Below, one piece after another: positions 41,015 to 58,844 of a DNA stretch of 64,000 nt. The stretch covers positions 1 to 64,000 of the forward strand of contig NZ_VSRN01000001.1 in the NCBI RefSeq assembly GCF_008369915.1, written 5' to 3'. The number at the start of each line of letters is the position of its first letter. Position 1 is the stretch's first letter. The position numbers and the translations under genes are program-made. Below the pieces are notes generated by a model. It was given only the letters and a program-made list of their open reading frames with translations, ran no database searches and was not told where the DNA came from. Source of the stretch: Dyadobacter sp. UC 10. Its GTDB lineage: Bacteria > Bacteroidota > Bacteroidia > Cytophagales > Spirosomataceae.

Positions 41015-41192
41015 TCCGCTGCCGCGGGGAAGTTGCCTGCTCATTTACCGGCTTCATCTTAAAATAGGTGTAGATACATGATGGACAAATGATTAATAAG
41101 AATCTCCGGAATATCAGCCACAGTAGTGAACAGCCAGGTGACGCAACCATTTTCAAAATGGAAACAGTTGAAAATGATTTTCGGAACAAATC

Positions 41193-43139
<1,947 letters not shown>

Positions 43140-43180: not shown

Positions 43181-44101
43181 CTATGGGGATTTAAATGTAT
43201 CCTCAGCCCGGAGGCTTTGCTTTTTTGCGGTTGGAAATTGCGCGGGTACGGGATAGCTTACTTTGCCTGTGGCCAGCCATTCCGTAGCCCTGATCACCGT
43301 CGTCTGATAGCCCACACAACGATACGCCGGCGGATAAAACTCTCCCTTCCATAAATGTCCCAGACTTGAATTGTAGACCCGCCCCGCACCATAACTAACT
43401 ACCCATTCAACCGGCCAGGTCCGCTTTGTACTGGTACTATCATAGGCAAACGACAGCACCGTCAGGTTCTCGGCCGGCCCGCGAGGGAAATAGTATACCT
43501 CCGTATTTGCTGTCTGCCATTGGCTGGGATAGCCCTTATTGATAGGATGAGGATTCAATATTTGAATAAGCGCATTAAACCTGTCGCCATGGCCAGTCCC
43601 CTGTCCCTCGCCAGGCGGTATCCTGATCACGCTACTGGACGGACCAATTTCAAGCGCGTAGCCTTCTGAACTTTTACGCCATCCCAGGCCGATCATTTTG
43701 TCATATTCTTTCCAATGCGGGAATGCATTGTTACCTGAATGCAGAATATACAGCCCACCACCTCCCTTCACATACTCTTCCAGCTGCCGCTCCGCTCCGG
43801 CCGGCCATTTAAGCCGGGTGTTCTGAATATTATTGGTATTCTGGATCACAACAGCATACTTAGCAAATACGGGATTCCAGCCTGCACGTTCCACGGAATC
43901 GGCGGGAATGGTACTAACATCCACTTGGAAGCGTCCGCTTTCTTCCAGTATCCACTTCGTTACAGCGGTAGTCTGTTTCCAGTCATGGTTACTGAAACCG
44001 TCCACGATCAGGACCGGGATCGGCCCGGATTTCTGTGCCCGGGCAGAACAAAGACCGAGGCAGATCAGCGTGAAGAAAAAATGTGATTTGAGCATGAGCA
44101 T
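43181..44101 (-). CDS. ThuA domain-containing protein, secreted
   Basis: Encodes 306 residues. The signal (HFFFTLICLGLCSARAQ) is followed by a ThuA-like, class I glutamine amidotransferase-like fold: 'PVLIVDGFSNHDWKQTTAV', 'LEEYVKGGGGLYILHSGNNAF' and 'PVEWVVSYGAGRVYNSSLGH'. ThuA proteins accompany sugar catabolic genes; trehalose or other disaccharide use is known for some, but the chemistry is poorly defined. It sits 18 bp after the VOC gene and 53 bp before the esterase in the same operon. Confidence 0.87.
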   Translation of the reverse strand: MLMLKSHFFFTLICLGLCSARAQKSGPIPVLIVDGFSNHDWKQTTAVTKWILEESGRFQVDVSTIPADSVERAGWNPVFAKYAVVIQNTNNIQNTRLKWPAGAERQLEEYVKGGGGLYILHSGNNAFPHWKEYDKMIGLGWRKSSEGYALEIGPSSSVIRIPPGEGQGTGHGDRFNALIQILNPHPINKGYPSQWQTANTEVYYFPRGPAENLTVLSFAYDSTSTKRTWPVEWVVSYGAGRVYNSSLGHLWKGEFYPPAYRCVGYQTTVIRATEWLATGKVSYPVPAQFPTAKKQSLRAEDTFKSP

Positions 44102-44119: not shown

Positions 44120-44641
44120 TTATTCCATTGGGCCGATCAGCTCCACAAAGTTGCCGTCGGGATCTTGTACCAGAACGAAGTGTAGTTTCTGGTTCAATGC
44201 GGTTGGCGTATTACCCAGAAAATCCACTTTTTGCTGTTTCAACCGCTCAATGACCGGTTTGAGCGCTTTGACCTGGATCGTAATGTATTGCATTCCCGTA
44301 TCGTCCTGAATGTATTTAGGCCGGGGATGCGCTGCCTTTTTGCCGAAACTCATCAGCTTCCATTCGTTGGCTTCCGGGCTGTTTTCGAGTTTAAGAATGT
44401 TGACATCCACAGCCACACCATTGGTCAGGCCCGAGCGTTTTCCAAAATCTTCATTGATCGTAAAATTTCCCGTTTTAACCATGCCAATCCCTTCGACATA
44501 AAAATCAAGCGAACGCTCCATGTCGGAGACCACGACGCCAACGCCGATGAGCCTGCTGGAAAAATTGGATTGCGCGTAAGTAGCACTGCCGAACAGCAGC
44601 ATAAAAAAGAACAGGCAGAATGCGGATATTGACTTTTGCAT
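44120..44641 (-). CDS. VOC-family (glyoxalase-like) protein, secreted
   Basis: Encodes 173 residues. The signal peptide (SAFCLFFFMLLFGSATYAQ) is followed by two beta-alpha-beta-beta-beta modules of the vicinal oxygen chelate fold: 'IGVGVVVSDMERSLDFYVEGIGM' and 'MQYITIQVKALKPVIERLKQ', ending 'FVLVQDPDGNFVELIGP', where Glu is a usual metal ligand. The typical first-module His is replaced by Val (GVGVVVS), so metal binding may be altered. It is in the utilisation operon; its role there is unknown. Confidence 0.85.
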   Translation of the reverse strand: MQKSISAFCLFFFMLLFGSATYAQSNFSSRLIGVGVVVSDMERSLDFYVEGIGMVKTGNFTINEDFGKRSGLTNGVAVDVNILKLENSPEANEWKLMSFGKKAAHPRPKYIQDDTGMQYITIQVKALKPVIERLKQQKVDFLGNTPTALNQKLHFVLVQDPDGNFVELIGPME

Positions 44642-44694: not shown

Positions 44695-46380
44695 TTATTT
44701 CGAAACCTTTTCGAACATGGGATCATTGCCGCTGTATTTCAGGTATTTAAAAGAGGCAGAGTTGGTCGTTTTTTCGCCGGATGAAGTCGCATACATGCCA
44801 AACAAACAACCAATAAAACCGCCTGCTTCTTTGGTACTCAGGAATTTGGCATCGAGCTTGTCTTTCAGCAGTTGCCAGGAAGTACCATTGGAAAAATAAA
44901 AGCTGCAAGTCCCTCCGTCGGCCACGATACGCAGTTTAATTGGCGATGCGTCGGCAAGCGGCATTTGAGTAAGCAATTCCATTTCCTTGTCCTTCGGATT
45001 GCTTTTGTAAAGCTGGATCACAGGTTTGCCCTGATCCACTGATTTACTGATAAAATAAAAATGGCGCTCGTCCTGAAAAATGGTCAGACCTGCCTTTTCT
45101 TTTTCTGATTGAGCTGAAAAGTCAAGCTCGGTTTCAGTGGTGCAGTATAAATGTTGCTGGCGTTTACCGATAAAGGAGGGGTTACCCAGATCCATAATGG
45201 TCTCCGGCTTCAATTTCAGGGTCAGGCCGTTTTTTTTGGAAAGTGAAAATGAGCTGCTGTCGATGGTACGCATGAAAAGCAATGCCGGGTCCAGCGATTT
45301 CTCAAAAGTGAGTGTATAGGCAAAGTTCCCTGCCTGCGGAAGCGCTCCTTTCTGCTTCACTTCACTGAATGGCACCTTGTATTGATATTGAATTTCTTTG
45401 GTATCCGGATTAATAATCGGCCACTCGTCTTTCCAGGTGACGGGTGCTATGAAAGTTTCCCGTCCGGTATTGTAATAATCTCCTTCATAAGGCCTTACAG
45501 CGAGAAAAATAGCATACGTTTTACCATCCGGCCCATCTACAAACTGCGCATGGCCTGCGGAAGTGACCGGATCTTTCCGGTCTTCGGGAAGTCCCATTTG
45601 CGTCAAAATAGGATTGTTTTCATACGGCACGTACGGTCCCCAAACGGATTTGCTGCGAAATACCACTTCAGTATGATTGACGGACGTGCCGCCTTCGGCC
45701 GCGTACAGGTAATACCAGCCAAAACGCTTCATAATGTGTGGCGCTTCGATCCAGACAGGCTTTTTGCTAAGGTCCACCCCGCCATTGACCAACTGTTTTT
45801 CCTCCCCGATCACTTTCAACGTTACGGGGTCAATTTCATAAATGCGGATTGTCCTGTGGCCCGGATACAAGGATTTGCTCCCCGGCGCATCGCTGTTATA
45901 AACGATGTAAGCTTTATTATCGTCATCAAAAAAGAGCGACGGATCGATCCCCCGAACCTGCGGGACACGGACCGGGTTGCTCCACGGGCCTGCCGGATTT
46001 TTGGACGTGACCACAAAATTACCGTCATGATCAATATCGGTGCAGGTGACATAAAAAGTGCCGTTATGGTAACTGATCGCTGGTGCAAAAAGACCGCGGG
46101 TCAGTTTTTCACCTATGAAATCCATTTGCGACGGACGATCGATCACATTCCCGATCTGCTTCCAGTTTTTTAAATCCTTGCTGTGAAATACAGGGATACC
46201 CGGAAAGTAGGAGAAAGTCGAATTGACCAGATAATAGTCCTTCCCGACCTGCACCACGCTCGGGTCGGGATAGAAGCCCGTCAGGATTGGGTTTACAATC
46301 GTGGTTGTCTGCGCCGTAGCAGCATAACTTATCACAAGAAAAAATACTGTAAAAACAGCCTGAGCAAATCGCTTGTTCAT
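44695..46380 (-). CDS. GH43 family glycoside hydrolase (beta-xylosidase/arabinofuranosidase type)
   Basis: Encodes 561 residues with a signal peptide (FAQAVFTVFFLVISYAATAQ). The five-bladed propeller (about 25-330) has all three catalytic acids: Asp in 'TGFYPDPSVVQVG', the pKa-modulating Asp in 'VRGIDPSLFFDD', and Glu in 'VWIEAPHIMKRFGWYYLY'. A C-terminal concanavalin-like domain (about 350-550, 'TETELDFSAQSEKEKAGLTIFQD') is typical of the GH43 beta-xylosidase group. It would release xylose or arabinose from oligosaccharides in the periplasm. It lies 32 bp after the GH95 gene in the same operon. Confidence 0.92.
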   Translation of the reverse strand: MNKRFAQAVFTVFFLVISYAATAQTTTIVNPILTGFYPDPSVVQVGKDYYLVNSTFSYFPGIPVFHSKDLKNWKQIGNVIDRPSQMDFIGEKLTRGLFAPAISYHNGTFYVTCTDIDHDGNFVVTSKNPAGPWSNPVRVPQVRGIDPSLFFDDDNKAYIVYNSDAPGSKSLYPGHRTIRIYEIDPVTLKVIGEEKQLVNGGVDLSKKPVWIEAPHIMKRFGWYYLYAAEGGTSVNHTEVVFRSKSVWGPYVPYENNPILTQMGLPEDRKDPVTSAGHAQFVDGPDGKTYAIFLAVRPYEGDYYNTGRETFIAPVTWKDEWPIINPDTKEIQYQYKVPFSEVKQKGALPQAGNFAYTLTFEKSLDPALLFMRTIDSSSFSLSKKNGLTLKLKPETIMDLGNPSFIGKRQQHLYCTTETELDFSAQSEKEKAGLTIFQDERHFYFISKSVDQGKPVIQLYKSNPKDKEMELLTQMPLADASPIKLRIVADGGTCSFYFSNGTSWQLLKDKLDAKFLSTKEAGGFIGCLFGMYATSSGEKTTNSASFKYLKYSGNDPMFEKVSK

Positions 46381-46412: not shown

Positions 46413-48872
46413 TTATTGGGCTAGAAAGGAATACACTTTCCCAGCCTGTGTAGGGACATCGTAAATCAATGTTTCCTTCAAAGGTTGAGTTGCCTTTGCG
46501 GCTTTGGGTGAAACGACGGCCGCAGGCGTATCCTCGGTGATATAAAATGCATTTGGGTTCTGCCCGGTGGCTTTGTTCAGTGTTGCACCGCCAGCCAGCT
46601 TCACTGCATTGGGCACCCGTAACCGAAGGTTCCCACCCAGTTTGGACCGAATTTCTACCTTAGTGAGCTTACCGCCGGCCCATTGCATATCGACGATCTC
46701 AAACCCGCCTAATGCAAGGATGCCGCCAATGCTGCCCTCTTTCCAAACGTCCGGCAGCGCTGGTAACAAATGAATTGCCCCATCGGCACTTTGCATCAGC
46801 ATTTCGGTAATGCCGGAAGTACACCCAAAGTTGCCGTCGATCTGGAATGGCGGGTGTGCGTCGAAAAGATTATTGTAAGTTCCCCCGCCTTCCTTGTTCG
46901 TGCCGAGCGGGGAAAGCTGGTTTTGGATCAATGTAAATGCGTGATTTCCGTCTTGCAGCCTGGCCCACCAGTTTACCTTCCAGCCCATGCTCCATCCTGT
47001 GGAAACATCACCTCGCTGCATTAAAGTAGTCCGTGCCGCGGCGAAAAGCTCGGGGGTTCGATACGGGGAAATTTGCACCGACGGAAACAAACCGTACAAA
47101 TGCGAGACGTGGCGGTGGTGGTCGTTGGGATCGTCGACGTCGTCGAGCCACTCCTGCAATTGTCCGTACTGGCCGACATGCATTGGCGGCAGTTGTTTGC
47201 GTTTTTGTCTGAGCGTATCAACGAAAGCTGCATCTTTTTTCAATATTTCCGCTGCGCGAATGGTCGTACTGAAAATGTCAAAAGCGATCTGATTATCCAT
47301 CGTCGTGCCGGCATCCAGTGAAGAGCCTTCGTGCGCGGCGGGAGCGTTTTCGGGAGAGCTGCCGGGGTTTGCAACCAGCCAGTGATATTTGGGATGATTT
47401 ATGAGAAAATCTACATAAAAAGTAGCTGCTCCTTTTAGTACCGGATATATTCTTGCCAGATAAGCCTTGTCGCCGGTGTACAGATAATGTTCCCAAAGAT
47501 GCTGACTCGTCCAGGCACCGCCAGCGATCCACATACCCCAGAATGCGCCGTCAATTGCGCCGGTTGCCCGCCAGATATCGGTATTATGGTGCGCCATCCA
47601 GCCTCTTGCGCCGTACATATCCTTTGCGGTCTGCTGCCCGGTTTGCGAAAGCTCCTGTACCATTTTCAGGAAAGGCTCGTGCAGTTCAGAAAGATTGGTC
47701 TTCTCTGCCGGCCAGTAATTCATCTGCGCATTAATGTTGATCGTGTACTTACTATCCCACGGCGGCCTCATCTTATTGTTCCAGATCCCCTGCAAATTGG
47801 CAGGCTGTCCGCCCGGCTGCGAGCTGGAAATCAGCAGGTAACGGCCATATTGATAATACAGAGTGACCAGCCCCGGATCATTCACATTCCGGAAGCTTTT
47901 CAAGCGTTCGTCAGTTGGAAGATTGGCTGCTTCTGATGTTCCCAGGTCGAATTTTACACGATTGAAGTATTTCTGAAAGGCTGCAATGTGCGGTTTCAAG
48001 ATCGCGTCGTATGATTTGGAATACGCCCTGTTCAAATAGGAAGCCGCCAATGCGTTTTCATCACCGCTTACATCCCGGTAATCCTTGAAGTTGGTCGCGA
48101 TCGAAATGAATATTGTTGCTGCATCGGCTCCGTTGATAACCAGTGAAGTATCAGTTGCAGACACGTTACCACCATCGTTTTTAACTTTCGTGATCACTTT
48201 GAACTTCACCGCTCCGGTCACGCCTTCATGATCGGAACCTCTGCCGGCAAGGACCAACTCCCTGCCCGGCGTGGTTCTGATTTCCGGCTGAGCATGTAAT
48301 GTAGAATAGGATGCCGCAAAGGACAACTTACCAGGTTTATCGGCCGTCAAATGCACTACCATCACCTGGTCCGGAAATGATGCGAGGACTTCCCGCGTGA
48401 ATATTACGCCATTGACTTTATAAATCGTTTTCGCCACGGCCCGCTCCATGTCCAGCTCGCGATAGTATGCCTCATATTGCTCATGTCCCGGAAAGTTTAG
48501 ATGCAGCTCGCCAGCAGGCTGAAACATTTGCCCGTGCGATTTTTTAGTAATAATTGCCTTATTGGCCAGTTTTTCGGCTTCTTTTTGTTTTCCTTCAAAA
48601 ATCAATCTGCGGATCTCTGGCAGCGCGGCCAGTGCGTCGGGGTTGTCATTCCGGTTCGGGCCACCCGACCATAATGTGCCTTCATTAAGCTGTATCCGCT
48701 CATCGGCCACGTTGCCATATACCATCCCTCCCAGTCTGCCATTACCAATCGGCAATGCATTCTCCCAGGTTTTGCCCGAAGGCTGGTTATACCAAAGTTT
48801 TAGTGCCCGGTTTGTCTGGCCGAATCCAACGGTTGTAATCAGTAATAAAAGGCAGAAAAATAATCGCATCAT
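46413..48872 (-). CDS. GH95 family alpha-L-fucosidase/alpha-L-galactosidase
   Basis: Encodes 819 residues with signal MMRLFFCLLLLITTVGFGQ. The N-terminal beta domain has the family opening 'LKLWYNQPSGKTWENALPIGNGRLGGMVYG', here across two strands. The (alpha/alpha)6 catalytic barrel has 'NINAQMNYWPAEKTNL', 'GSSLDAGTTMDNQIAFDIF' and 'HRHVSHLYGLFPSVQISPY', which are standard GH95 blocks carrying the active-site Asn, Glu/Asp and His residues. GH95 removes terminal alpha-1,2-L-fucose or alpha-L-galactose from plant glycans. It starts 20 bp after the HTCS gene and is followed by GH43 and an esterase, which fits a decorated xylan or xyloglucan. Confidence 0.93.
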   Translation of the reverse strand: MMRLFFCLLLLITTVGFGQTNRALKLWYNQPSGKTWENALPIGNGRLGGMVYGNVADERIQLNEGTLWSGGPNRNDNPDALAALPEIRRLIFEGKQKEAEKLANKAIITKKSHGQMFQPAGELHLNFPGHEQYEAYYRELDMERAVAKTIYKVNGVIFTREVLASFPDQVMVVHLTADKPGKLSFAASYSTLHAQPEIRTTPGRELVLAGRGSDHEGVTGAVKFKVITKVKNDGGNVSATDTSLVINGADAATIFISIATNFKDYRDVSGDENALAASYLNRAYSKSYDAILKPHIAAFQKYFNRVKFDLGTSEAANLPTDERLKSFRNVNDPGLVTLYYQYGRYLLISSSQPGGQPANLQGIWNNKMRPPWDSKYTININAQMNYWPAEKTNLSELHEPFLKMVQELSQTGQQTAKDMYGARGWMAHHNTDIWRATGAIDGAFWGMWIAGGAWTSQHLWEHYLYTGDKAYLARIYPVLKGAATFYVDFLINHPKYHWLVANPGSSPENAPAAHEGSSLDAGTTMDNQIAFDIFSTTIRAAEILKKDAAFVDTLRQKRKQLPPMHVGQYGQLQEWLDDVDDPNDHHRHVSHLYGLFPSVQISPYRTPELFAAARTTLMQRGDVSTGWSMGWKVNWWARLQDGNHAFTLIQNQLSPLGTNKEGGGTYNNLFDAHPPFQIDGNFGCTSGITEMLMQSADGAIHLLPALPDVWKEGSIGGILALGGFEIVDMQWAGGKLTKVEIRSKLGGNLRLRVPNAVKLAGGATLNKATGQNPNAFYITEDTPAAVVSPKAAKATQPLKETLIYDVPTQAGKVYSFLAQ

Positions 48873-48892: not shown

Positions 48893-51800
48893 TTATGCTT
48901 TTTCAAGGTAATTCTCCGCAAACACTGTTGGCGACACCCCATAGAACTCTTTGAAAGCTACCGAAAAGCTGTTTACATTGGCAAACCCAACGGCAAATGC
49001 AACCTCAGAAACCATCAAACCCTTCACCGTCAGCAAATCCGCTGCCTGCCTGAGTCGGATGTTGCGGATTAAATCCCGGGTTGTCAGATTGGTCAGTTCT
49101 TTGAGCTTGCGATGTAAATGCACCCTGCTGATCCCGACTTCATTACAGATCATTTCCACGCTCAGGTCGGGGTTTGCCAGGTTTTTGTCAATAAACAGAT
49201 GTACCTTTTCCAGCAGCTTTTCTTCCGAAGCCTTCATATTTATCCGGGAAATGAATTCCTCCTGGTAATGCTGCTCATTATCGTTGTTTCGAAGTATCTG
49301 TCTGTTTCTGATCAGCCCATTGATTGTCTTCATTAATATCTGCATGTTAAAGGGCTTGGTAATGTAAGCGTCCGCTCCCATTTCGAGCCCCTCCACATTG
49401 GTCGATTCTGCTGTTTTGGCGGTGAGCAGGATAACCGGGATGTGGTTTACCAACGGGTTCGCCTTTAACTTTTTGCAAAGGGTCATACCATCCATAACCG
49501 GCATCATCACGTCGCTGACCACCAGATCGGGCATTTCTTTTAAAATAGCTCTATATGCTTCCTCGCCATTCGCATAAGCGAATACGGTGAATTCGCCCGA
49601 CATTTCGTCTGTCAGATAGTTGCAGATCTCGCTGTCGTCATCGACGATCACCAGGCGTTTGGCTTTTTTCCTCGGCTTGTTTCTATGCCCGTCGTCCGCT
49701 GCGGTTTCCGGTGACAATTGATCTGCCGCCAACATTTTACCGATCGGATCGATTTCTACTGTTTCCACCTTTTCAACCGGCATGGAGATCACAAACCGGC
49801 AGCCGGCTTCTACCATATTTTCTGCGTGGATCTTTCCGCCGTGCAGTTCTACCAATTGTTTCACAAGATGAAGGCCGATTCCCGTTCCGTACCTGTTATA
49901 GTCACGGTGTTGTTCGGATTGGTAAAAGCAGTCGAAGATGCGCTCCGTTTCATTTTCATCAATAAATGCGCCCGAATCTTCCATCGCGATGATCAGTTCA
50001 GGTCTTCCACTGATAGTACGGGCGTTTGTGATTGAAATTGAAACACGGATTTTCCCTCCTTTGGGCGTGAATTTGAAAGCATTGGAAAGGACATTGATCA
50101 AAACCTTATCAAAATTGAGCGGATCAATGTGAGCGAAGATCTTCTCCGAAGGCATATCCATCAAAAAATCGATATTCTTTGTCTCGATCTGTTCTTCAAA
50201 CAGCAAACATATTTCCTTAGTAAAATCGACCATTTCCACGCTCGAAAACTGCAAAGACATTTGGCCTTTCTCAATTTTACGAATGTCCATCAGCTGATTG
50301 ACCAGGTCCAATATACGTTTGGTATTACGACCCATAATTTCGTACAAATGCATCCTTTCCGCATTGTAATCCTGCGCCAGCAATTTTTGGAGCGGGCTGA
50401 CCACCAATGTAAGCGGTGTACGTATTTCGTGTGCGATATTGATAAAGAATTCAAGCTTTGCTTCATTAACCTCTTCCCGGCGCAGATGTGCCAGCATTTC
50501 CTTTTTTACCAGCCGCCTGTTTTTATATGTTTTGAAAATATAAATGGCTGCCAATAGCGTAAACAGGGAATATGCGATCCACGCCCAAACCGAGAAGTAC
50601 CATGCAGGATGTATGATGATGGCCACCTGCGTTTGCTCGGAATCTGTCTGGCTGTATTTTGCTTTTAGCCGGAATTGATACTTCCCGGGCGTTAAATTAT
50701 CGAATGTCAGCCTGTTGGTACCGGCCCGCAGCGCTGTCCATTCGTTATCGTTAATGGCATACATGTAAGAAACGCGTTCCGCGTCGATAAAATCCATCGT
50801 CGAAAATTCAAGGCTGAACGAGTTATCATGATGGGCAAGATTAAATTCCTTCGCGCTGCTTACGGTCGTATCGACGATCATATAGCCCCCGGATTTCATA
50901 CCCTTTTTCACCGCCTTATCATGAATAAACAGGTCCACAATTCGAACCGCAGGCCGCTTGGTGGACATTCGTATTTCCTCGGGCTTGAAAAAGGTAATGC
51001 CATTGATCCCGCCAAAGTAGAATTCCCCATTTTTGGTTACCATTAAGGCCCCCTGGCTGAATTCGTTTCCCTGCAATCCATCGGCTGAGTAAAAGTTGAC
51101 AAACGTATTGGTTTTCAAGTCCATTTTTGACAGGCCGCGGTTTGTACTCAGCCAAAGATTTCCGGCCTTATCGCCTCTTACAGCACCGATCAGGTTGCTG
51201 GGCAGGCCATCGCCCATATCAAATGTGGTGATCACTTTGGTAGCACGGGCGATCCTTTTCAGTCCCTGCGAAGTGCCGGCCCACAAATTTCCCTTATCGT
51301 CATCAAAGAGCGAATAAATCACCACTCCTTTCAGAAGGCTGTTTACGGAGAATGTGGATACGAAGTTCTTGGTTTCCAGATCAAGGCAAGCAAGCCCGTT
51401 GAAGGTGCCGATAAAAAGTTTGTTGTCCTTGGAAATCAGTAAGCAATTGACCCAGCTATTGGGAAGGAAATTTTCGTTCGGAAGGCTGATCCTGCCTGGT
51501 AAAGCATCCAGATTTTCAACTGCCCCCGTGCGGAGGTCCATGCAAAAAATCCCGGAGCCCATCGTGGCGACCCAAAGCCGTTTATTTGAATCCTCCCTGA
51601 TGTCGAAAACCCGCTGCACATTGTCTCCATTCTTGTCTGTCAACTTATCAGAATGGCTAAACTTCCCGGTTTTGCGGTCCAGTTTGGATAGCCCGCTGAG
51701 ATAGGAACCTGTCCAGAGGTTTCTTTCGGAATCTTCAAAAACAACCATCACATTCTCCGGTGCAGCAGGGTTATCCTTGCTTTTGACGTAATGAACACCT

Positions 51801-52978
51801 GATTTAACTGCGTGAGGCAATCCATACAGGCCATCACTGTCTGTTCCTACCCAAATTGTATTGCTGCTATCTTCAAATAACGCTTTCACGGCACTCGAAC
51901 CGATAGCGTTGTCACTGGCCGACTTATAACCCATATAGCCAAAACGGTTGGTATTGACGCCCAGCAGCAGTAAGCCCTTCTGATAAATTCCTACCCACGT
52001 ATTACCCGAGCTGTCTTCACAAATTGAAAACACTTTCGACTTTGTAAAATCAAATGTGTCCACATTGTGGTTCATATCGAGGATCTTACCGGACACAGAA
52101 TCGAAGTATTTCATTCCTTTCCCCCTCGTCCCGATGAGTACCTGCCCGTTGTCGTTGACCGTCAGATCAGCAATGGGCAGATTATCGGCTTCGTCATACG
52201 GGACTGGTTGAAAGATATCATTCGTAGTGCTGTACTGGTACAGACCGCTCACCATATTTCCGGCAAACACCCGGCCATATTTGTCCTGGCAGAGGCTTGT
52301 TATGATGTTGTTTTGGCTTCTTTTGGAAACAAAGTAAGCTTTGCTGGATTTTAAAGAAGTGTCCTCAAACCGCAGCAGCCCTCTGTCTTCTGTCGACACC
52401 CAGAGATTACGATCGCTGTCTTCAAACAATTGAATAATCAGATTGCTGGGAACCTGCAAGGGTATCGGCTTCGCGCAGAGTTGCCTGCCGTCATGCCCGA
52501 CCTTAAATATGCCATGCCCGGAAGTACCTACCAGAATATCACCGTTCCTTCGCTGGCAGATCGCCAGTACCCGCACGCTGGCCATTTTACTTTGCCCATT
52601 CATAAGGGGTATGGTGCGGAAGGAGTCCGTGGCAGGGTCATAATATTGCAGGCCGTGGAGCGAGCCGGTGTACATTCTTCCCGCCCGGTCTTCGAAAAGG
52701 ACCTGGATGAAATTACTGGACACGCCTTCGCCATTTGCCTTATCCTGCCGGTACACGGTGAATTTTATCCCGTCGAAACGGTTCAGCCCGTCTTCGGTAG
52801 CTACCCATATGAAGCCACTACGATCCTGATGAACCGCAGTGACCATGCTGCTCGACAGTCCATTTTCAACACTGAAAAGTTTGGCGGACTGCCCGGATAC
52901 ATCTGACAGGAAACATAACCAGGCGACCAGTATTCGCATCAACAGCATTAAATGGTATGATGCGCGCTTCTCTGTCAT
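48893..52978 (-). CDS. Hybrid two-component system regulator (HTCS) of the utilisation locus
   Basis: Encodes about 1361 residues. The frame is open to 53083, but the predicted promoter (-7 box 53081-53088) lies there, so a start at 52978 or a later Met (52948, 52939) is needed. Order: signal, propeller repeats (about 30-720), Y_Y_Y domain, one membrane helix, histidine kinase ('IAHEIRTPLTLV', N-box 'NVLSNAFKFTPKG', G2 'GTGIGLHLV'), receiver from about residue 1106 (Asp in 'DLVVSDVMMPVMDG') and a C-terminal AraC helix-turn-helix. The G1 box reads 'EDSGAFID' where DxGxGI is usual. It senses a periplasmic oligosaccharide and activates the locus; an identical operator precedes its own gene and susC. 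Confidence 0.93.
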   Translation of the reverse strand: MTEKRASYHLMLLMRILVAWLCFLSDVSGQSAKLFSVENGLSSSMVTAVHQDRSGFIWVATEDGLNRFDGIKFTVYRQDKANGEGVSSNFIQVLFEDRAGRMYTGSLHGLQYYDPATDSFRTIPLMNGQSKMASVRVLAICQRRNGDILVGTSGHGIFKVGHDGRQLCAKPIPLQVPSNLIIQLFEDSDRNLWVSTEDRGLLRFEDTSLKSSKAYFVSKRSQNNIITSLCQDKYGRVFAGNMVSGLYQYSTTNDIFQPVPYDEADNLPIADLTVNDNGQVLIGTRGKGMKYFDSVSGKILDMNHNVDTFDFTKSKVFSICEDSSGNTWVGIYQKGLLLLGVNTNRFGYMGYKSASDNAIGSSAVKALFEDSSNTIWVGTDSDGLYGLPHAVKSGVHYVKSKDNPAAPENVMVVFEDSERNLWTGSYLSGLSKLDRKTGKFSHSDKLTDKNGDNVQRVFDIREDSNKRLWVATMGSGIFCMDLRTGAVENLDALPGRISLPNENFLPNSWVNCLLISKDNKLFIGTFNGLACLDLETKNFVSTFSVNSLLKGVVIYSLFDDDKGNLWAGTSQGLKRIARATKVITTFDMGDGLPSNLIGAVRGDKAGNLWLSTNRGLSKMDLKTNTFVNFYSADGLQGNEFSQGALMVTKNGEFYFGGINGITFFKPEEIRMSTKRPAVRIVDLFIHDKAVKKGMKSGGYMIVDTTVSSAKEFNLAHHDNSFSLEFSTMDFIDAERVSYMYAINDNEWTALRAGTNRLTFDNLTPGKYQFRLKAKYSQTDSEQTQVAIIIHPAWYFSVWAWIAYSLFTLLAAIYIFKTYKNRRLVKKEMLAHLRREEVNEAKLEFFINIAHEIRTPLTLVVSPLQKLLAQDYNAERMHLYEIMGRNTKRILDLVNQLMDIRKIEKGQMSLQFSSVEMVDFTKEICLLFEEQIETKNIDFLMDMPSEKIFAHIDPLNFDKVLINVLSNAFKFTPKGGKIRVSISITNARTISGRPELIIAMEDSGAFIDENETERIFDCFYQSEQHRDYNRYGTGIGLHLVKQLVELHGGKIHAENMVEAGCRFVISMPVEKVETVEIDPIGKMLAADQLSPETAADDGHRNKPRKKAKRLVIVDDDSEICNYLTDEMSGEFTVFAYANGEEAYRAILKEMPDLVVSDVMMPVMDGMTLCKKLKANPLVNHIPVILLTAKTAESTNVEGLEMGADAYITKPFNMQILMKTINGLIRNRQILRNNDNEQHYQEEFISRINMKASEEKLLEKVHLFIDKNLANPDLSVEMICNEVGISRVHLHRKLKELTNLTTRDLIRNIRLRQAADLLTVKGLMVSEVAFAVGFANVNSFSVAFKEFYGVSPTVFAENYLEKA

Positions 52979-53080
52979 TATTGCCTTGTAGTTGTCTTCC
53001 CCGATATGCCGATCGACTGCGGTCATGTTACATGCTGTTGTTACTGTTAACTGCTTTTCGTCCTGATTTACAACAGAAAA

Positions 53081-53146
53081 CAAATATATGTGGGCATAAT
53101 ACTATAAGTACCGGCACAATGTTACATAAGTCATGGCGTATGTTAC
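53081..53146 (-). promoter_or_regulatory. HTCS gene promoter with 28-bp operator
   Basis: The operator at 53119-53146, read on the plus strand, consists of two direct ATGTTAC half-sites (53119-53125 and 53140-53146), 21 bp from start to start, with a conserved centre. Thirty bp from its lower edge is a perfect -7 box on the minus strand, TATATTTG (53088-53081). The same operator, spacing and box precede susC. No good -33 element is present, as expected for activator-dependent transcription. Two extra half-site-like ATGTTAC/TTGTTAC copies at 53025-53044 lie downstream in the leader. Confidence 0.8.
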
Positions 53147-53193
53147 CGATCGGAAGCCTGCCGATGTTCAGGCAGGCTTCCGGCGGGCATTCA

Positions 53194-55011
53194 TCAATAT
53201 CCGGGATTTTGTCTGATACCGGGATTCTGATCGAGCACATTTTGCGGAATAGGGCTCATATACTGTTTGAGCTCAAATTTCACTTTGTATTTTTTCTCCT
53301 CTTCTACGGTGTAAACCCAAACACCCGAATTGTTCGCAGGCACCGAATTCCGGATCACCATATTGTGACGTGGCTTGTTCATGACAGTAGCTGCCATAGC
53401 CAGGCGTTTGTTGTCCAGAAAGCGCTTGTCCTCAAAGCAGAGTTCAACCCTCCGCTCGCGCGCAATGGCAGCACGCATTGCTTCCTTGGACAGGCCGCCG
53501 GGAAGTGCAGGCAGCTCCGACCGGGCGCGTAGCTTGTTGATCGCGTCATATACGGAAGCATCCGGGCCGCTCGCTTCGTTTTGCGCTTCCGCGAAGTTCA
53601 GGAGGATTTCGCCATAGCGGAAGAAAATATAGTTTTGTCCGCTGGCATCGCTACCCGGCGCCGCGTCAGGGTTCAATCGTTTTTTCTGGTAATATCCCGA
53701 ATCGCCCACGTCGGTTTTCCCTGCAAGGTCGATCTGGTTTGTCCGGTCAGGATTTGGATAGGTTGCGTCAATTCGCGTGTAGATCGTGTCGGCGCGGGGC
53801 ATCCATTCCTGCTTGTATATCGCTCCGTCGTGAACGATGGCATCGTAGAAGCGCTTTTCGCGATTTACATAAGGTTTCTGAGGATTATAGCCCGAAGTCG
53901 GATCGGTGATCGGCTTTCCGTTGGCCATCGCAAACTGGTCTACCAGCTCCTGTGTCGGATTGTAATTTCCCCACGACCGGTATTCGCCCAGCACGTAAGT
54001 CGGACCGCCGCGCTGCTCGTAGCTGGAACCCATTCCGCCGACGTTGGCTACCACCTGCCGGTCCCAGATTACCTCCGAATTGTACTCATTGCTGGCCCTG
54101 AACAGGTTTTTTAGATCGGCAAACAGGTTATAATTCTTCCCGTTACCATATTTTTCAATAAACTCTTTGTTAGTAGCAGCAGCCTTCGCCCAGCGCGCAG
54201 GATCATAATTACCAAAATGAACGAACTTCTCTGCATCGGTTAGATAAGGTGTAGAAGTATTGAACAACGGGCTTGCACCGAAAAGCTCGATCCAGCCTTT
54301 CACGGCTAACGCAGCTCCCAATGTAGCCCGGCCGGCCTCCTTGTCCGACAAATTGTATTTGACGGCCAGGTATTCATTTTTCGAAATCTGATCCAGCTCA
54401 GTTACAATGAAATCAAACGTTTCCTGGAATGTATTCCGCGGTCTCAACAGCTCTTCCGGGCTCATTGTATTTCTGTCCAAAGGCTCCTTAATGATCGGCA
54501 AGCCTCCTATCTGAACAAAAAATTCGCTGTAAAAGAATGCTCTCAGGAACCGGGCTTCGTCAATGCGTTTGTTGAAATACGCTTCTGAAAAGTTGGCTTT
54601 GTTCTCAGTTAATTTCTGCATAAACGTGTTGCACTTCCTGATCTTGACGAAAAAATTCTGCCAGGTATAACCGTAAGTCGGCCCCTGCGTTCCGCCCCAG
54701 GGATTGTCCGTGCTGCTGGACGGGATCTGGGTCACACCCTGCCGCCAGTTGGAAGCCGTGTAATAATGGCTGATGTTGTAATCGTCGCTAAAATAGTCCA
54801 GTGTCTCCGTCTGGTTCAGCTTGTTGGGAATTTCACTGTACACATCATTCAGGAAAACATCGGCATTGGTTTCGGATTCCCATTGTGTTTGATCCGTGAG
54901 ATTGGCTTTGTTGGCGTTTTCCAAGAACTCATCTGTATCGCACGATACGGGTAGCACAAGCATCAAAATGCCCATACCTATGATTTTAAAGTAGTTTATA
55001 GCTGCTTTCAT
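53194..55011 (-). CDS. SusD/RagB-family outer-membrane glycan-binding lipoprotein
   Basis: Encodes 605 residues from ATG 55011. An in-frame ATG at 55026 overlaps the susC stop (TAATG), so coupled initiation there is possible. The lipoprotein signal ends 'LMLVLPVSC'. TPR-rich helices typical of SusD follow: 'RIDEARFLRAFFYSEFFVQIGGLPII', 'YGEILLNFAEAQNEASGP', 'AINKLRARSELPALPGG' and 'RERRVELCFEDKRFLDNKRL'. It captures oligosaccharides at the surface for the SusC partner encoded immediately upstream. Confidence 0.93.
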   Translation of the reverse strand: MKAAINYFKIIGMGILMLVLPVSCDTDEFLENANKANLTDQTQWESETNADVFLNDVYSEIPNKLNQTETLDYFSDDYNISHYYTASNWRQGVTQIPSSSTDNPWGGTQGPTYGYTWQNFFVKIRKCNTFMQKLTENKANFSEAYFNKRIDEARFLRAFFYSEFFVQIGGLPIIKEPLDRNTMSPEELLRPRNTFQETFDFIVTELDQISKNEYLAVKYNLSDKEAGRATLGAALAVKGWIELFGASPLFNTSTPYLTDAEKFVHFGNYDPARWAKAAATNKEFIEKYGNGKNYNLFADLKNLFRASNEYNSEVIWDRQVVANVGGMGSSYEQRGGPTYVLGEYRSWGNYNPTQELVDQFAMANGKPITDPTSGYNPQKPYVNREKRFYDAIVHDGAIYKQEWMPRADTIYTRIDATYPNPDRTNQIDLAGKTDVGDSGYYQKKRLNPDAAPGSDASGQNYIFFRYGEILLNFAEAQNEASGPDASVYDAINKLRARSELPALPGGLSKEAMRAAIARERRVELCFEDKRFLDNKRLAMAATVMNKPRHNMVIRNSVPANNSGVWVYTVEEEKKYKVKFELKQYMSPIPQNVLDQNPGIRQNPGY

Positions 55012-55025
55012 TGTATTGGTTATCA

Positions 55026-58000
55026 TTAAAATGTCAGATCAATTCCAAATGTGCTTGCTTTCATCACAGGATATGCGGTCTCACGGTCGGTATAGCCCAT
55101 TTCCGGATCAATGTGCTTGATCTTGCTGATCGTAAACAGGTTTTGCGTGAGAAAGTAAACCCTGGCTGAGCTCATTTTGAGTTTACCCAGCACGCTCTTC
55201 GGAATCGTATATCCAATGCTGGCCGTTTTCAGGCGCAGGTAGCTTGAATTAACCCACCAGAAATCCGAATCCTTTGTGTTGTTTGCATAAGGCGCGGGGG
55301 TCGATCTGGGATACTTCGCATGCTGGTTTTCAGGCGTCCAGCGGTTATCGTAGTATTCGTAGCCCGTGTTGCTGCCATTATTTTCAAACGGAACAGTCAT
55401 AAATTGTCTTACACTGATACTCGATTTTCCGGAGCCCTGGAAGAACAAGCTCACATCAAACCCCTTCCAGTTGACACTGGGCGTGAGGCCGAATGTTAAG
55501 GCCGGATAAACGGGATTGCCGATCACAGTCAGATCGAAATTATCGATCAGACCATCAGGTGTGCCGTCGGGGCCGCTCAAATCAGCGTATTTAATGTCGC
55601 CAGGGTGCAGTTCACCGAATTGGACAACATTGTAGCCGTCCGCCGCCCCTACAATTCCGTCCCCGTTTTTGTCTTCCGCAGACTGAAACAATCCAAGCGA
55701 CTTGAATCCGTATGGTGTTCCAAATTGTCTTCCAACCAGCGTACGGTTAGGGTTATTGGCCTCAGCGTCGGTCTGGAAAACTTCCTGCATCCGGTTGATA
55801 GCGTAACTGGCATTGGCATTCAAAGAAAAGTCCAGGTCCTTGGAAATCCGCTTGCGCGTTCCGATGTTCAATTCCACGCCATTGGCACTCATTCTTCCCT
55901 TATTTTCCTGCGAAAGCGAAAGTCCGTATTCGACGGGCAGTGTTACCTGCGGTGCCAGCAGCATTCCGGTCCGCTTTTCATGGAAGTAATCAAATTCTAC
56001 GGTCAGCAGCGAATTCAACATGCTCAGGTCAAATCCAATGTCTGTTTTTGTTGAAATTTCCCAGGTAATCTTCGAATTGGCTTCACGCGGCACTCTCGAT
56101 GCCTGAACCAGTGAACCGTTGCCGAATGCATAGGCAGCTCCTCTCAAATCGTATCCTGACTGGTATTGAAAAGGCCCGCCGGCCAGCATACCAGCCTTAC
56201 CCCAAGATCCTCTGATTTTCAATTCGTCGATAAAACGGAAGTTTTTCATGAAATTCTCTTCCGAAACCCGCCAGGCAGCCGAGAATGCGGGGAAATAACC
56301 CCATCTGCTGCCCGGTGCAAAGTAGTAGTGACCATCGTAACGTCCGGCCGCTTCGAGAATATATTTGTCTTTATATGTATACCCTATTCTATATACGTAA
56401 CCCAATTCCGATCCCGTGGACGATACACCGGCATTATCGTAATCCAGTTTATCGGAGCTACCGAAACTCAATTCATCGATTCCGATCGCGAAATTATTAC
56501 GACGGGTAGCCATTGAATCTGCTTTGGTCTTGCGGGCTTCCATCACCAGCAACCCGGTTATCGCATGCGGCCCGAATGTGCGGTTGTAGTTCAGGTAAGC
56601 CTGATAAGTGTAATTGGTCCGCTTTTGGTTTTGCAATCCCAGCCATCTGAACGGTCTGCCGTTTCCTTCCTGAAGAGAAATAGCTTCGGAGTACGTATAA
56701 GGTTTTTGCGAAAGGTCAATCTTGTGATAGACAAACGGCACGTGCCACAATTTCACGTTCTGCTGCCAGGGATCATAGCTGAACACCAACTTGGCACTCA
56801 AACCCTTCGCAATTTGCTGTTCGACAAACAAGCTACCGAGCAACGTGCTTCCATTGGTGCGTCTATACCCTTCAGACCGTAACACGCCGATCGGCGTGTT
56901 GGCCGACGATTCGCCCCATTTATCACCCTCGGGATATAACAGACTCTGAGTAGGTAAAAACTTGTAAAAGCTGCGGAAAAGGTGGCCAGAAGTGCTTTCG
57001 TCGGCATCTACATCTTTTGTGTTTTCAACGCTTCCAAACAGCGACATACCTACTTTCGTAGTCTTGGTTGCTGCCATTTCAAGGCTCAGGTTGTAGTTAT
57101 AACGCCTGTAACCTACCGGGTCGAAAATACCTTTTTGGTCGAAATAGCTTACACCCGCATGATATGTGACATTCTCCGTGCCGCCGCTCAGTTCCAATCC
57201 GTGGTTTTGTACCGGGACATTCTTATTAAATACATCGACAAAGCTGGAATTCGGATATTTCCACGGGTCCTCCGCATGCAGCTGATCGTAGTTTCTAACA
57301 AGTTCCGGATCGTTTGGAAGACTGGCCCCGCCAGGAGTCTGGTTCAGATAAGCCTCATTCTGCAACGCCATGTAATCCTTCGCCGACAGCATTTCGGGCA
57401 GGTAGGTCGGATTTTGGAAGCCGTAGGACGAGCTAATCCGCACCTGTGGTTTTCCGGTTTTGCCCTTTTTGGTGGTGATCATAATTACACCGTTCGCACC
57501 GCCGATACCATACGGCGCCACAGCCGCCGCATCCTTCAAAATCGTGATGGTCTCTATGCTGGCCGGGTCCACCTGCCTGATATTGTCCCTTCTGACACCA
57601 TCCACGACGACAAGCGGCCGGTTATTACCCGTTGTCACAATGCCGCGAATGTGAATATCCGGGTCATCCTTTCCGGGCTGCCCGCCATTGGGCCGCATAC
57701 TTACACCTACCACACGTCCAGCCAGAGACTGTGAAATATTCGGTGCCGGTACTTCCGCAATGGCATCACCTTTAATGCTGCTGATCGACCCGGTAACCGT
57801 GGCTTTTTTCTGGGTACCGTAACCCACCACCACAATTTCTTCCAATGCCTTTGTATCCTGAGCCAGAACGACATCCAGCTTGCTTACCGTACCTACCGCA
57901 AGTTCTTTGGCCAGATAGCCCACAAATGAGAAAACCAGCACATCCTGGTCATCCACTGATTCCAGGGAGTAAAGTCCGTTCGCGTCTGTGGATGTGCCGC

Positions 58001-58211
58001 GCGTAGTGCCTTTGACGGTCACATTAACCCCGGGAAGTCCCTGGCCTGCCTCATCAGAGACTTTGCCGCTCAATTTCCTGTCAACTGACTGCGCCCGAAC
58101 ACTTCCGTCAAATACAACAGAAGAAGCCGCGGCGAACGAGTCGGAAGCCGCAATCAGGCATGTTAATTGTAGAAATGACAATTGTAAAAAAAACCGTAAT
58201 TTTTCCTTCAT
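55026..58211 (-). CDS. SusC/RagA-family TonB-linked outer-membrane transporter
   Basis: Encodes 1061 residues from ATG 58211, which starts a signal peptide (MKEKLRFFLQLSFLQLTCL); a longer frame to 58256 is less likely. A carboxypeptidase-like domain comes first ('LSGKVSDEAGQGLPGVNVTV'), then the SusC signature 'LEEIVVVGYGTQKKATVTGS', the plug 'NISQSLAGRVVGVSM ... DIHIRGI' and 'ETITILKDAAAVAPYG', then the barrel to a terminal 'STFGIDLTF'. It imports oligosaccharides with SusD. The promoter is HTCS-controlled, with a leader of about 150 bases. Confidence 0.95.
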   Translation of the reverse strand: MKEKLRFFLQLSFLQLTCLIAASDSFAAASSVVFDGSVRAQSVDRKLSGKVSDEAGQGLPGVNVTVKGTTRGTSTDANGLYSLESVDDQDVLVFSFVGYLAKELAVGTVSKLDVVLAQDTKALEEIVVVGYGTQKKATVTGSISSIKGDAIAEVPAPNISQSLAGRVVGVSMRPNGGQPGKDDPDIHIRGIVTTGNNRPLVVVDGVRRDNIRQVDPASIETITILKDAAAVAPYGIGGANGVIMITTKKGKTGKPQVRISSSYGFQNPTYLPEMLSAKDYMALQNEAYLNQTPGGASLPNDPELVRNYDQLHAEDPWKYPNSSFVDVFNKNVPVQNHGLELSGGTENVTYHAGVSYFDQKGIFDPVGYRRYNYNLSLEMAATKTTKVGMSLFGSVENTKDVDADESTSGHLFRSFYKFLPTQSLLYPEGDKWGESSANTPIGVLRSEGYRRTNGSTLLGSLFVEQQIAKGLSAKLVFSYDPWQQNVKLWHVPFVYHKIDLSQKPYTYSEAISLQEGNGRPFRWLGLQNQKRTNYTYQAYLNYNRTFGPHAITGLLVMEARKTKADSMATRRNNFAIGIDELSFGSSDKLDYDNAGVSSTGSELGYVYRIGYTYKDKYILEAAGRYDGHYYFAPGSRWGYFPAFSAAWRVSEENFMKNFRFIDELKIRGSWGKAGMLAGGPFQYQSGYDLRGAAYAFGNGSLVQASRVPREANSKITWEISTKTDIGFDLSMLNSLLTVEFDYFHEKRTGMLLAPQVTLPVEYGLSLSQENKGRMSANGVELNIGTRKRISKDLDFSLNANASYAINRMQEVFQTDAEANNPNRTLVGRQFGTPYGFKSLGLFQSAEDKNGDGIVGAADGYNVVQFGELHPGDIKYADLSGPDGTPDGLIDNFDLTVIGNPVYPALTFGLTPSVNWKGFDVSLFFQGSGKSSISVRQFMTVPFENNGSNTGYEYYDNRWTPENQHAKYPRSTPAPYANNTKDSDFWWVNSSYLRLKTASIGYTIPKSVLGKLKMSSARVYFLTQNLFTISKIKHIDPEMGYTDRETAYPVMKASTFGIDLTF

Positions 58212-58368
58212 AGCAGAAATGAATTTAAGGTGATAGAAGCATTTTTTACGCGACAACCCATTGGTACGTTACGCACGTAGCAGCAGTCAGATGCTGGAAA
58301 AGCCAGCGTTTATTCATCGTTAAACTGATACACAAATGAATAAAGTCGCTTTTCAGCACAACCGAGCA

Positions 58369-58434
58369 CAAATATATATTTATATAATGCAATTAATCCG
58401 CGATAAATGTTACACAAATCATTGCTGATGTTAC
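58369..58434 (-). promoter_or_regulatory. susC promoter with 28-bp operator
   Basis: The operator at 58407-58434 has direct ATGTTAC half-sites at 58407-58413 and 58428-58434, 21 bp apart start to start. It matches the operator before the HTCS gene at 23 of 28 bases. A perfect -7 box, TATATTTG on the minus strand (58376-58369), lies exactly 30 bp away, as at the HTCS gene. This puts the operator at about -43 to -70, a usual activator position. The remaining leader 58212-58368 shows nothing else. Confidence 0.82.
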
Positions 58435-58461
58435 ATTTTGCCCTTTCCCATGTTAAATAAA

Positions 58462-58488
58462 TAAGCCGTAGCGATTAGCTACGGCTTA
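58462..58488 (-). terminator. Terminator, 11-bp perfect stem
   Basis: TAAGCCGTAGC (58462-58472) pairs with 58478-58488 around the loop GATTA. On the minus strand it is followed by TTTATTTAAC. It separates the VCBS/PVC transcript from the susC promoter that begins 28 bp further on. Confidence 0.75.
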
Positions 58489-58844
58489 CAAGCTTCTCCT
58501 TATTGCTTAATAAACTGAATCACCTGCTTTTCCGGACCAGCTGCCGGTCCGGCGGCTCTATGAATCCAGGCTTAAATACTTCGCTTTCAACTTCTTATGA
58601 TCCAGAAAAGGCATGAAATAGTTACCAATGGATTCGCTGATATAACAGCGATTTTTTACAGTAATATGCCACATCAATATCCTGTATTCTAAGATAGATG
58701 GCTTACCGCAAATTACTTCGAACCTCAGGGAGAAATGCTGTTGTCAGATTTGACAATACTGAAAGGATCGGTATGTGAAGGGATAACAATATTTACCAGG
58801 AGCTGAATTTATACCAAGGTTAAAATCCAGTTCCTGGCAATGCC
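58489..58844. other. 356-bp segment without a supported gene
   Basis: This lies between the VCBS gene stop and the terminator. It has a 7-bp inverted repeat (CCGGACC 58532-58538 with GGTCCGG 58546-58552). A 38-codon minus-strand frame (58674-58558) and a Met-less frame ending 'PEKQVIQFIKQ' are open, but too short to call. It may contain remnants of a lost gene. Confidence 0.4.

What the first reader, a model, noticed from the sequence alone, without database searches (positions are those of the whole stretch)
53081..58434. Same 28-bp operator and identical promoter spacing before the HTCS gene and susC
At 53119-53146 and 58407-58434 there are 28-bp elements with 23 identical bases, each made of two ATGTTAC direct half-sites 21 bp apart (two helical turns). 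In both, exactly 30 bp separate the operator from a perfect TATATTTG -7 box on the minus strand. Neither gene has a good -33 element. AraC-type output domains of HTCS proteins bind such sites, so this looks like the operator of the HTCS encoded here, which would activate susCD and its own operon (with GH95, GH43, VOC, ThuA, esterase). It also fixes the HTCS start downstream of 53081. The match, the spacing and the boxes are read directly; the binding protein is inferred.
Basis: partly seen in the sequence, partly recalled or inferred. Interest (0 to 1): 0.78.

Follow-up and report, generated by a model that had tools for sequence, protein, structure and literature searches.

The report
Sensor-regulator operator before susC and itself
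Two near-identical 28-base DNA elements in a Dyadobacter genome, kept at the same distance from the promoter in all 18 examined genomes that carry the same sensor-regulator protein, are likely the sites through which that protein would switch on a glycan-uptake gene pair and its own operon: a well-supported new example of an arrangement already predicted in gut Bacteroides.

Summary
Two 28-bp elements (23 of 28 identical) each hold two ATGTTAC half-sites 21 bp apart and lie exactly 30 bp before TATATTTG on the minus strand. The pair is unique in the 6.93-Mb genome: 2 exact matches, control 0. Orthologues of the adjacent HTCS (64-87% identity) occur in 18 of 222 family genomes. All 18 carry the element with its -7 box: 15 exactly, 3 with one mismatch. 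Of the 204 other genomes one has exact operator plus box. The gap is 30 bp in 26 of 27 sites, 29 bp in one. In Spirosoma and a third genus the element precedes an unrelated-looking susC (28-31% identity), so it follows the HTCS, not the transporter. A further conserved element sits 7 bp before the -7 box. The copy before the HTCS gene is optional (10 of 18 genomes). Best reading: the HTCS binds as a dimer and activates susCD and its own operon; binding and sign are inferred. Direct-repeat HTCS sites averaging 21 bp apart were predicted in 2013, so this is a new member of a known kind. A general spacing rule is suggested, not shown.

The parts
53119..53146 (-). HTCS-promoter operator: GTAACAT-N14-GTAACAT read on the minus strand
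   Evidence: conserved at this place in 7 of 9 Dyadobacter orthologous loci
58407..58434 (-). susC-promoter operator: GTAACAT-N14-GTAACAT read on the minus strand
   Evidence: conserved in 9 of 9 Dyadobacter orthologous loci
53081..53088 (-). -7 box TATATTTG of the HTCS promoter, 30 bp from the operator
   Evidence: in 27 related promoters found by requiring TAnnTTTG 27-33 bp away, the gap is 30 in 26 and 29 in 1
58369..58376 (-). -7 box TATATTTG of the susC promoter, 30 bp from the operator
53096..53105 (-). middle element ATAGTATTAT, 7 bp before the -7 box
   Evidence: five alternate positions invariant in 26 of 26 gap-30 sites; core plus -7 box 3 times in the genome, two of them these promoters, control 0
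58384..58393 (-). middle element ATTGCATTAT, 7 bp before the -7 box
48893..53026 (-). hybrid two-component system regulator (Reg_prop sensor, Y_Y_Y, HisKA, HATPase_c, receiver, AraC-type HTH_18); start set at ATG 53026 rather than the listed TTG 53083
55026..58211 (-). susC-like TonB-dependent transporter (CarbopepD_reg_2, Plug); likely start ATG 58211
53194..55026 (-). susD-like glycan-binding lipoprotein gene
46413..48872 (-). GH95 gene, second gene of the HTCS operon
44695..46380 (-). GH43 gene of the HTCS operon
44120..44641 (-). glyoxalase/VOC-fold gene of the HTCS operon
43181..44101 (-). ThuA-domain gene of the HTCS operon
41193..43127 (-). esterase gene, last of the HTCS operon
53151..53182 (-). 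strong hairpin between susD and the HTCS operator (12-bp stem), likely ends or stabilises the susCD message
   Evidence: z -5.65, 0 of 200 shuffles fold as well; a similar stem can be seen by eye after susD in G041, G004 and G033
58461..58489 (-). terminator-like hairpin directly upstream of the susC operator, after the preceding gene
   Evidence: terminator-like sites in this stretch are not above shuffles: 7 against a mean of 6.3

Best explanation
The two 28-bp elements are conserved direct-repeat promoter elements whose presence follows the HTCS gene, and they are likely the operators that this HTCS would bind to activate susCD and its own operon. Proposed working: an oligosaccharide in the periplasm is sensed by the Reg_prop/Y_Y_Y domain; the kinase phosphorylates the fused receiver; the freed AraC-type domains of a dimer bind the two GTAACAT half-sites, which lie two helical turns apart on one face of the DNA. 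From there, with its proximal half-site ending 30 bp before the -7 box, the bound dimer recruits RNA polymerase to a promoter that lacks a -33 element, probably helped by the conserved AT(T/A)GnA(C/T)TAT element in between. The copy before the HTCS gene would give positive autoregulation and co-induce GH95, GH43, VOC, ThuA and the esterase. Shown: sequence, spacing, uniqueness, conservation, co-occurrence with the HTCS orthologue, domains. Inferred: the binding protein, dimer, activation, autoregulation, transcription starts, inducing glycan.
For: Unique to these two promoters in the genome. Exact element in 15 of 18 orthologue-bearing genomes against 24 of 204 others (Fisher p 2e-10); exact element plus -7 box in 15 of 18 against 1 of 204 (p 1.7e-19) (relatedness of the genomes is not corrected for). 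The other 3 orthologue genomes have it with GTAACAC in one half-site and the same 30 bp. Of 54 exact matches in 222 genomes, the 24 in the orthologous loci all have the box and 2 of the other 30 do. Unrequired positions are also fixed: the last T of the first half-site, the T before the second half-site and the middle element, in 26 of 26 gap-30 sites, while the 13 bases after the operator are barely conserved. In Spirosoma and a third genus the element precedes a susC only 28-31% identical, below the best paralogue in the own genome (43%), so the shared partner is the HTCS. The HTCS keeps its phospho-acceptor His and Asp motifs and the first HTH (SRVHLHRK) in 18 of 18 orthologues. Prior art gives the same repeat structure and distance for Bacteroides HTCSs.
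Against: No binding, expression or start-site data. The HTCS-gene copy is missing in 8 of 18 loci, so autoregulation is not essential. The HTCS of Bacteroides reticulotermitis (48% identity in its best segment) has no such element in its 24-kb locus. A loosened pattern is at chance across the phylum (11 of 395 genomes; control columns 10 of 395 by my count). Co-occurrence also fits any other regulator inherited with the locus. TGTAACA is nearly its own reverse complement, so the orientation of the half-sites is not certain. The receiver loop reads NHIP in place of (S/C)HIP, a deviation that in Bacteroides can go with phosphorylation-independent binding or repression (PMC11253607), so the sign could differ.
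Confidence: 0.85

Rival explanations
1. A different DNA-binding regulator, inherited with the locus or encoded elsewhere, binds the element; the HTCS acts on other DNA.
For: Binding was not tested; the genome has 17 other Y_Y_Y matches, 11 of them in open frames of 1,195 residues or more, as other HTCSs would be.
Against: Of the locus genes compared, only the HTCS is found in each of the 18 loci: enzymes and even the susC family change. 18 of 18 orthologue genomes have element and box against 1 of 204. Outside the orthologues, 13 of 65 HTCS loci with a DBD hit carry a GTAAC-type repeat plus box, and all 13 have the SRVHFYRK helix; three more loci with that helix (L148, L150, L214) do not match that pattern (confounded by descent).
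Confidence: 0.07
2. The HTCS binds the element but represses, or acts without phosphorylation, so the two promoters are shut off or set at a basal level rather than induced.
For: All 17 orthologues in which the search expression matched read NHIP rather than (S/C)HIP; G003 gave no match. In Bacteroides BT2391, another deviant (FHIP), represses its locus (PMC11253607, passages seen).
Against: The operator ends 30 bp before the -7 box, where it would not cover the core promoter, and both promoters lack a -33 element, as expected for an activated promoter (inference).
Confidence: 0.08
3. The likeness is a relic of a duplicated promoter and the repeat has no function.
For: Within Dyadobacter the likeness extends beyond the operator to the middle element and the stretch after the -7 box.
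Against: Operator positions stay fixed while neighbouring positions vary, across 18 genomes and three genera with HTCS identity down to 64%; the copy is lost at the HTCS gene in 2 of 9 Dyadobacter but kept at susC in 9 of 9.
Confidence: 0.01

Closest known systems
Predicted HTCS operators of Bacteroides (Ravcheev et al. 2013, PMC3878776)
   Same: Direct repeat of two conserved sites, average distance 21 bp, in promoters of loci with susC/susD-type genes next to the HTCS gene; proposed dimer on one side of the DNA (passages seen).
   Different: Another family of the phylum; their motif logos and supplements were not seen, so the half-site cannot be compared. Here also an exact operator-to-(-7) distance and a conserved middle element, neither found in the passages read.
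BT4124 and BT4663 HTCSs of B. thetaiotaomicron (PMC11253607)
   Same: Gel shifts of HTCS receiver-HTH fragments with promoter DNA of the susCD homologues of their loci (passages seen).
   Different: Tested biochemically; here nothing is tested, and the receiver motif is NHIP instead of (S/C)HIP.
Housekeeping promoter of Bacteroidetes (-7 TAnnTTTG, -33 TTTG; PMC7366714, passages and one section seen)
   Same: Perfect -7 box in both promoters.
   Different: No TTTG 17-23 bp before the box in either; a TTG 13 bp before the box in 18 of 27 related promoters instead. The 17-23 bp window is recalled, not from a call.

Membership tests
HTCS operator as described for Bacteroides (direct repeat, about 21 bp) | two conserved sites as a direct repeat about 21 bp apart | tested here: met
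   (both copies in the window); one search lists 27 related sites, but there 21 bp was required by the search
HTCS operator as described for Bacteroides (direct repeat, about 21 bp) | lies in the promoter of susC/susD-type genes next to an HTCS gene | tested here: met
HTCS operator as described for Bacteroides (direct repeat, about 21 bp) | conserved before orthologous loci of related genomes | tested here: met
   18 of 18 orthologue genomes, 3 of them with one mismatch
HTCS operator as described for Bacteroides (direct repeat, about 21 bp) | bound by the cognate HTCS | not testable with these tools
   needs gel shift or footprint
hybrid two-component system protein | periplasmic sensor, histidine kinase, receiver and AraC-type HTH in one chain | tested here: met
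   Reg_prop, Y_Y_Y, HisKA, HATPase_c, Response_reg and HTH_18, each above its Pfam cut-off; transmembrane segment not tested
hybrid two-component system protein | (S/C)HIP receiver motif of most HTCSs (PMC11253607) | tested here: not met
   NHIP in 17 of 18 orthologues, no match of the search expression in G003; the paper reports exceptions, so this is not a defining feature and not disqualifying
Bacteroidetes housekeeping promoter | -7 box TAnnTTTG | tested here: met
Bacteroidetes housekeeping promoter | -33 TTTG | tested here: not met
   TTTG 17-23 bp before the box in 0 of 2 window promoters and 3 of 27 overall

The most novel reading that the evidence does not exclude
HTCS promoters follow a fixed geometry: a 21-bp direct-repeat operator locked about 30 bp (in another class about 20 bp, one helical turn closer) before the -7 box, standing in for the missing -33 element. 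In this clade the operator, a dedicated middle element and the -7 box form one portable promoter module that moves with its HTCS onto unrelated susC genes, so that operators of uncharacterised HTCSs could be read off from spacing alone.
Probability: 0.4. Interest if true: 0.6.

Novelty: new member of a known kind. Interest (0 to 1): 0.42.

Why it matters
In the papers seen, HTCS operators are predicted for 16 regulators of one Bacteroides species and tested by gel shift for two. Here a regulator, its sequence-defined operator and the promoter geometry are tied together by comparison of 222 genomes, giving a ready reporter and gel-shift target in Dyadobacter. If the spacing holds for other HTCSs, it would let operators be predicted from the -7 box and help explain how these promoters work without a -33 element.

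Tried and rejected
General spacing rule, first test: in 77 other HTCS loci (66, 11 from the own genome) 274 candidate -7 boxes were scanned over 533 gap-by-period cells; the top cells are period 21 with gaps 29-32 (20-29 boxes each, mean cell 1.5). In one search, 37 of 273 boxes had a period-21 repeat at gap 28-33 against 1-8 for other periods, and 24 at gap 18-24 against 1-10. After thinning to HTCSs under 50% identical, gap 28-33 had 6 of 118, with period 22 also at 6 and the others 0-3; under 40% identical, 6 of 86 against 0-2. Leaving out GTAAC-type repeats (50% set) it was 5 of 116 against 0-6. So the signal rests largely on one Bacteroidales clade with GTAAC half-sites. A second set (71 Dyadobacter loci, 69 HTCSs, 16 groups, 120 boxes) gave 22 boxes at gap 28-33 but in only 2 groups (period 22: 11 boxes in 4 groups), and 7 boxes in 6 groups at gap 18-24 (other periods at most 4 groups). 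I therefore call the rule suggested, not shown. A first version restricted to susC starts found almost nothing (1 of 45 promoters).

Further sites in the own genome: none convincing. The 1-mismatch site (553107) and the 17 two-mismatch sites held have no TAnnTTTG within the 72 bases after the repeat (which replaces a check that looked the wrong way for the minus-strand sites); 23 further two-mismatch sites were not looked at. Phylum-wide loosened pattern: at chance. Of the 30 exact sites outside the orthologous loci, 25 were read: 16 lie in open frames of more than 200 codons, 9 do not, and one has a box at 28-32 bp; 5 were not read (two in G112, one each in G182:C9, G206, G213), but one search tested all 54 for a box.

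Recognition-helix link: 13 of 65 non-orthologous HTCS loci with a DBD hit (some hits are spurious, under 22 bits; L209 had none) carry a GTAAC-type repeat plus box, and they have the higher DBD scores (Mann-Whitney p 1e-6), but close descent confounds it. A third ATGTTAC at 53025, over the likely HTCS start codon, has no 21-bp partner and was set aside. No paper describing a fixed operator-to-(-7) distance for HTCSs turned up in the listings of the searches or in the passages read from PMC3878776, PMC11253607, PMC7366714, PMC11501099, PMC10994844, PMC12596196 and PMC12125979 (passages only, plus one section of PMC7366714); supplements were not read and subscription papers are not in the library.
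Full report
Observation. The two elements, their 21-bp half-site period, their 23 of 28 identical bases, and the 30 bp to TATATTTG on the minus strand are all present as stated. In the window, 2 matches at up to 1 mismatch stand against a mean of 0.01 in 100 dinucleotide shuffles. In the 6,925,362-base genome the exact pattern occurs twice, both here, and its reversed control never. At up to 2 mismatches there are 43 matches against 110 for the control; the 18 inexact ones that were read have no -7 box within 72 bases. The regulon visible at this resolution is two promoters. No TTTG or TTG lies 17-23 bp before either box.

Surroundings. The gene at 48893 carries Reg_prop, Y_Y_Y, HisKA, HATPase_c, receiver and HTH_18 domains; 53194-55026 is susD-like and 55026-58211 susC-like. 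Behind the HTCS follow GH95, GH43, a glyoxalase-fold protein, ThuA and an esterase with gaps of 18-53 nt. A 12-bp stem lies between susD and the HTCS operator (z -5.65), and a terminator-like hairpin lies just before the susC operator (though such sites are no commoner here than in shuffles). Each operator thus likely opens its own transcription unit. The listed HTCS start (TTG 53083) falls inside the -7 box; ATG 53026 is the better start.

Conservation within the genus. The genus is Dyadobacter: same-genus genomes match named Dyadobacter contigs by length and coordinates. Nine of 48 genus genomes, own included, hold the HTCS orthologue (77% identity or more; next best 33%). All nine have the exact operator before susC, 30 bp (29 in one) from TATATTTG; seven have it before the HTCS gene too. 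In the other two (G004, G033) the stretch between susD and the HTCS no longer holds it. The other 12 of 28 exact matches in the genus lie outside these loci.

Conservation in the family. At E 1e-230 or better, 18 of 222 genomes have the orthologue, in three genera. The composite operator-N28-32-TAnnTTTG occurs in 16 of 222 genomes: 15 orthologue genomes and G112; one orthologue genome, G041, has a second match elsewhere, in a short open frame. The remaining three orthologue genomes have GTAACAC in one half-site and the same 30 bp. Fisher tests: exact operator 15 of 18 against 24 of 204, p 2e-10; operator plus box 15 of 18 against 1 of 204, p 1.7e-19. These genomes are related, so the p-values overstate independence. 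Outside Dyadobacter the operator precedes a susC with 28-31% identity to ours in 8 of 9 genomes and the HTCS gene in 3 of 9. That the element follows the HTCS while the transporter changes is the best evidence here for the cognate protein.

Anatomy. In 27 sites the gap is 30 bp in 26 and 29 bp in one. The first six bases of each half-site, the 21-bp period, a gap of 27-33 bp and the constant part of the box were required by the search. Not required, and so informative: the last base of the first half-site and the T before the second one (T in 26 of 26 gap-30 sites), an AT in the middle of the spacer (26 of 26; the one gap-29 site has AG there), and the element AT(T/A)GnA(C/T)TAT, whose five alternate positions are invariant in the 26, 7 bp before the box. 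The 13 bases just after the operator are poorly conserved. The middle element core plus box occurs three times in the own genome, two of them here, with no control match; it is therefore not a common feature of this genome's promoters. It might be a displaced -33-like contact (TTG 13 bp from the box in 18 of 27) or a contact of the activator. This is inference.

Mechanism. The anatomy fits an AraC-family activator dimer on one face of the DNA just upstream of a core promoter with a good -7 and no -33 box. Activation, autoregulation and the sign are inferred. Against a simple reading: the receiver motif is NHIP (17 of 18), while most HTCSs have (S/C)HIP and some deviants bind without phosphorylation or repress (PMC11253607, passages seen).

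Prior art. Ravcheev et al. 2013 (PMC3878776, passages seen) predicted motifs for 16 HTCSs of B. thetaiotaomicron, all direct repeats with average distance 21 bp, and proposed dimers two helical turns apart. The present case meets that description in another family of the phylum. It is a new member of a known kind.

Wider pattern. In other HTCS loci the period-21 repeat at 28-33 bp from a -7 box stands out (37 of 273 boxes against 1-8 at other periods), but thinning by HTCS identity at 50% leaves 6 of 118 with period 22 also at 6 (at 40%: 6 of 86 against 0-2). A Dyadobacter group with TTGAACAA half-sites at 30-32 bp and several groups at 18-24 bp suggest two classes one helical turn apart. GTAAC-type repeats with similar spacing appear beside HTCSs of Bacteroidales only 33-36% identical over the chain, yet not beside the closer relative in B. 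reticulotermitis (48% in its best segment). This is a lead.

Noticed in passing
window 48893-53026 (receiver domain): The receiver loop reads NHIP instead of the (S/C)HIP of most HTCSs, in 17 of 18 orthologues (G003 gave no match); in Bacteroides such deviations can go with phosphorylation-independent binding or repression (PMC11253607).
   Followed up: partly
window 53151-53182: Strong hairpin after susD (12-bp stem, z -5.65); a similar stem is visible by eye in G041, G004 and G033, the last two having lost the HTCS operator.
   Followed up: partly
L219, L236, L238, L239, L241, L244, L253, L256, L261, L267, L268, L276: Another Dyadobacter HTCS group has its own 21-bp direct repeat with half-site TTGAACAA, 30-32 bp before TACTTTTG or TACATTTG: a second candidate operator, upstream of an open frame.
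   Followed up: partly
L152-L161, L163, L173, L182, L214: HTCS loci of Bacteroidales (33-36% identity to this HTCS) carry GTAAC-type repeats 21 bp apart with 28-31 bp to TAnnTTTG; L154, L157 and L163 show several such or looser sites per locus.
   Followed up: partly
L110 around 9000 and L111 around 8973 (strand -): Two Spirosoma genomes share GTAACATCTTnTAGCACTCnTGTAACAT about 1.5 kb from another HTCS match (33-34% identity), without a -7 box at 25-35 bp; the L111 site lies in a long open frame. Perhaps the operator of a paralogue, perhaps chance.
   Followed up: no
window 40517-41014 (+): Convergent gene for a 165-aa protein with a likely signal peptide (by eye) and repeats of about 20 residues such as GTHATAFHNGNTSVIVNPN; the opposite-strand frame at 40523-41044 had no Pfam match.
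   Followed up: no
L122 (G188) and G000:C1:96535-100686: One HTCS orthologue (G188) and another HTCS of the own genome each have one in-frame stop, perhaps pseudogenes or assembly errors.
   Followed up: no
L077-L084: The enzyme content found behind the HTCS varies between the 8 other Dyadobacter loci held (GH95, GH43 and ThuA come and go within the 16-20 kb held) while HTCS and esterase are found in 8 of 8.
   Followed up: partly
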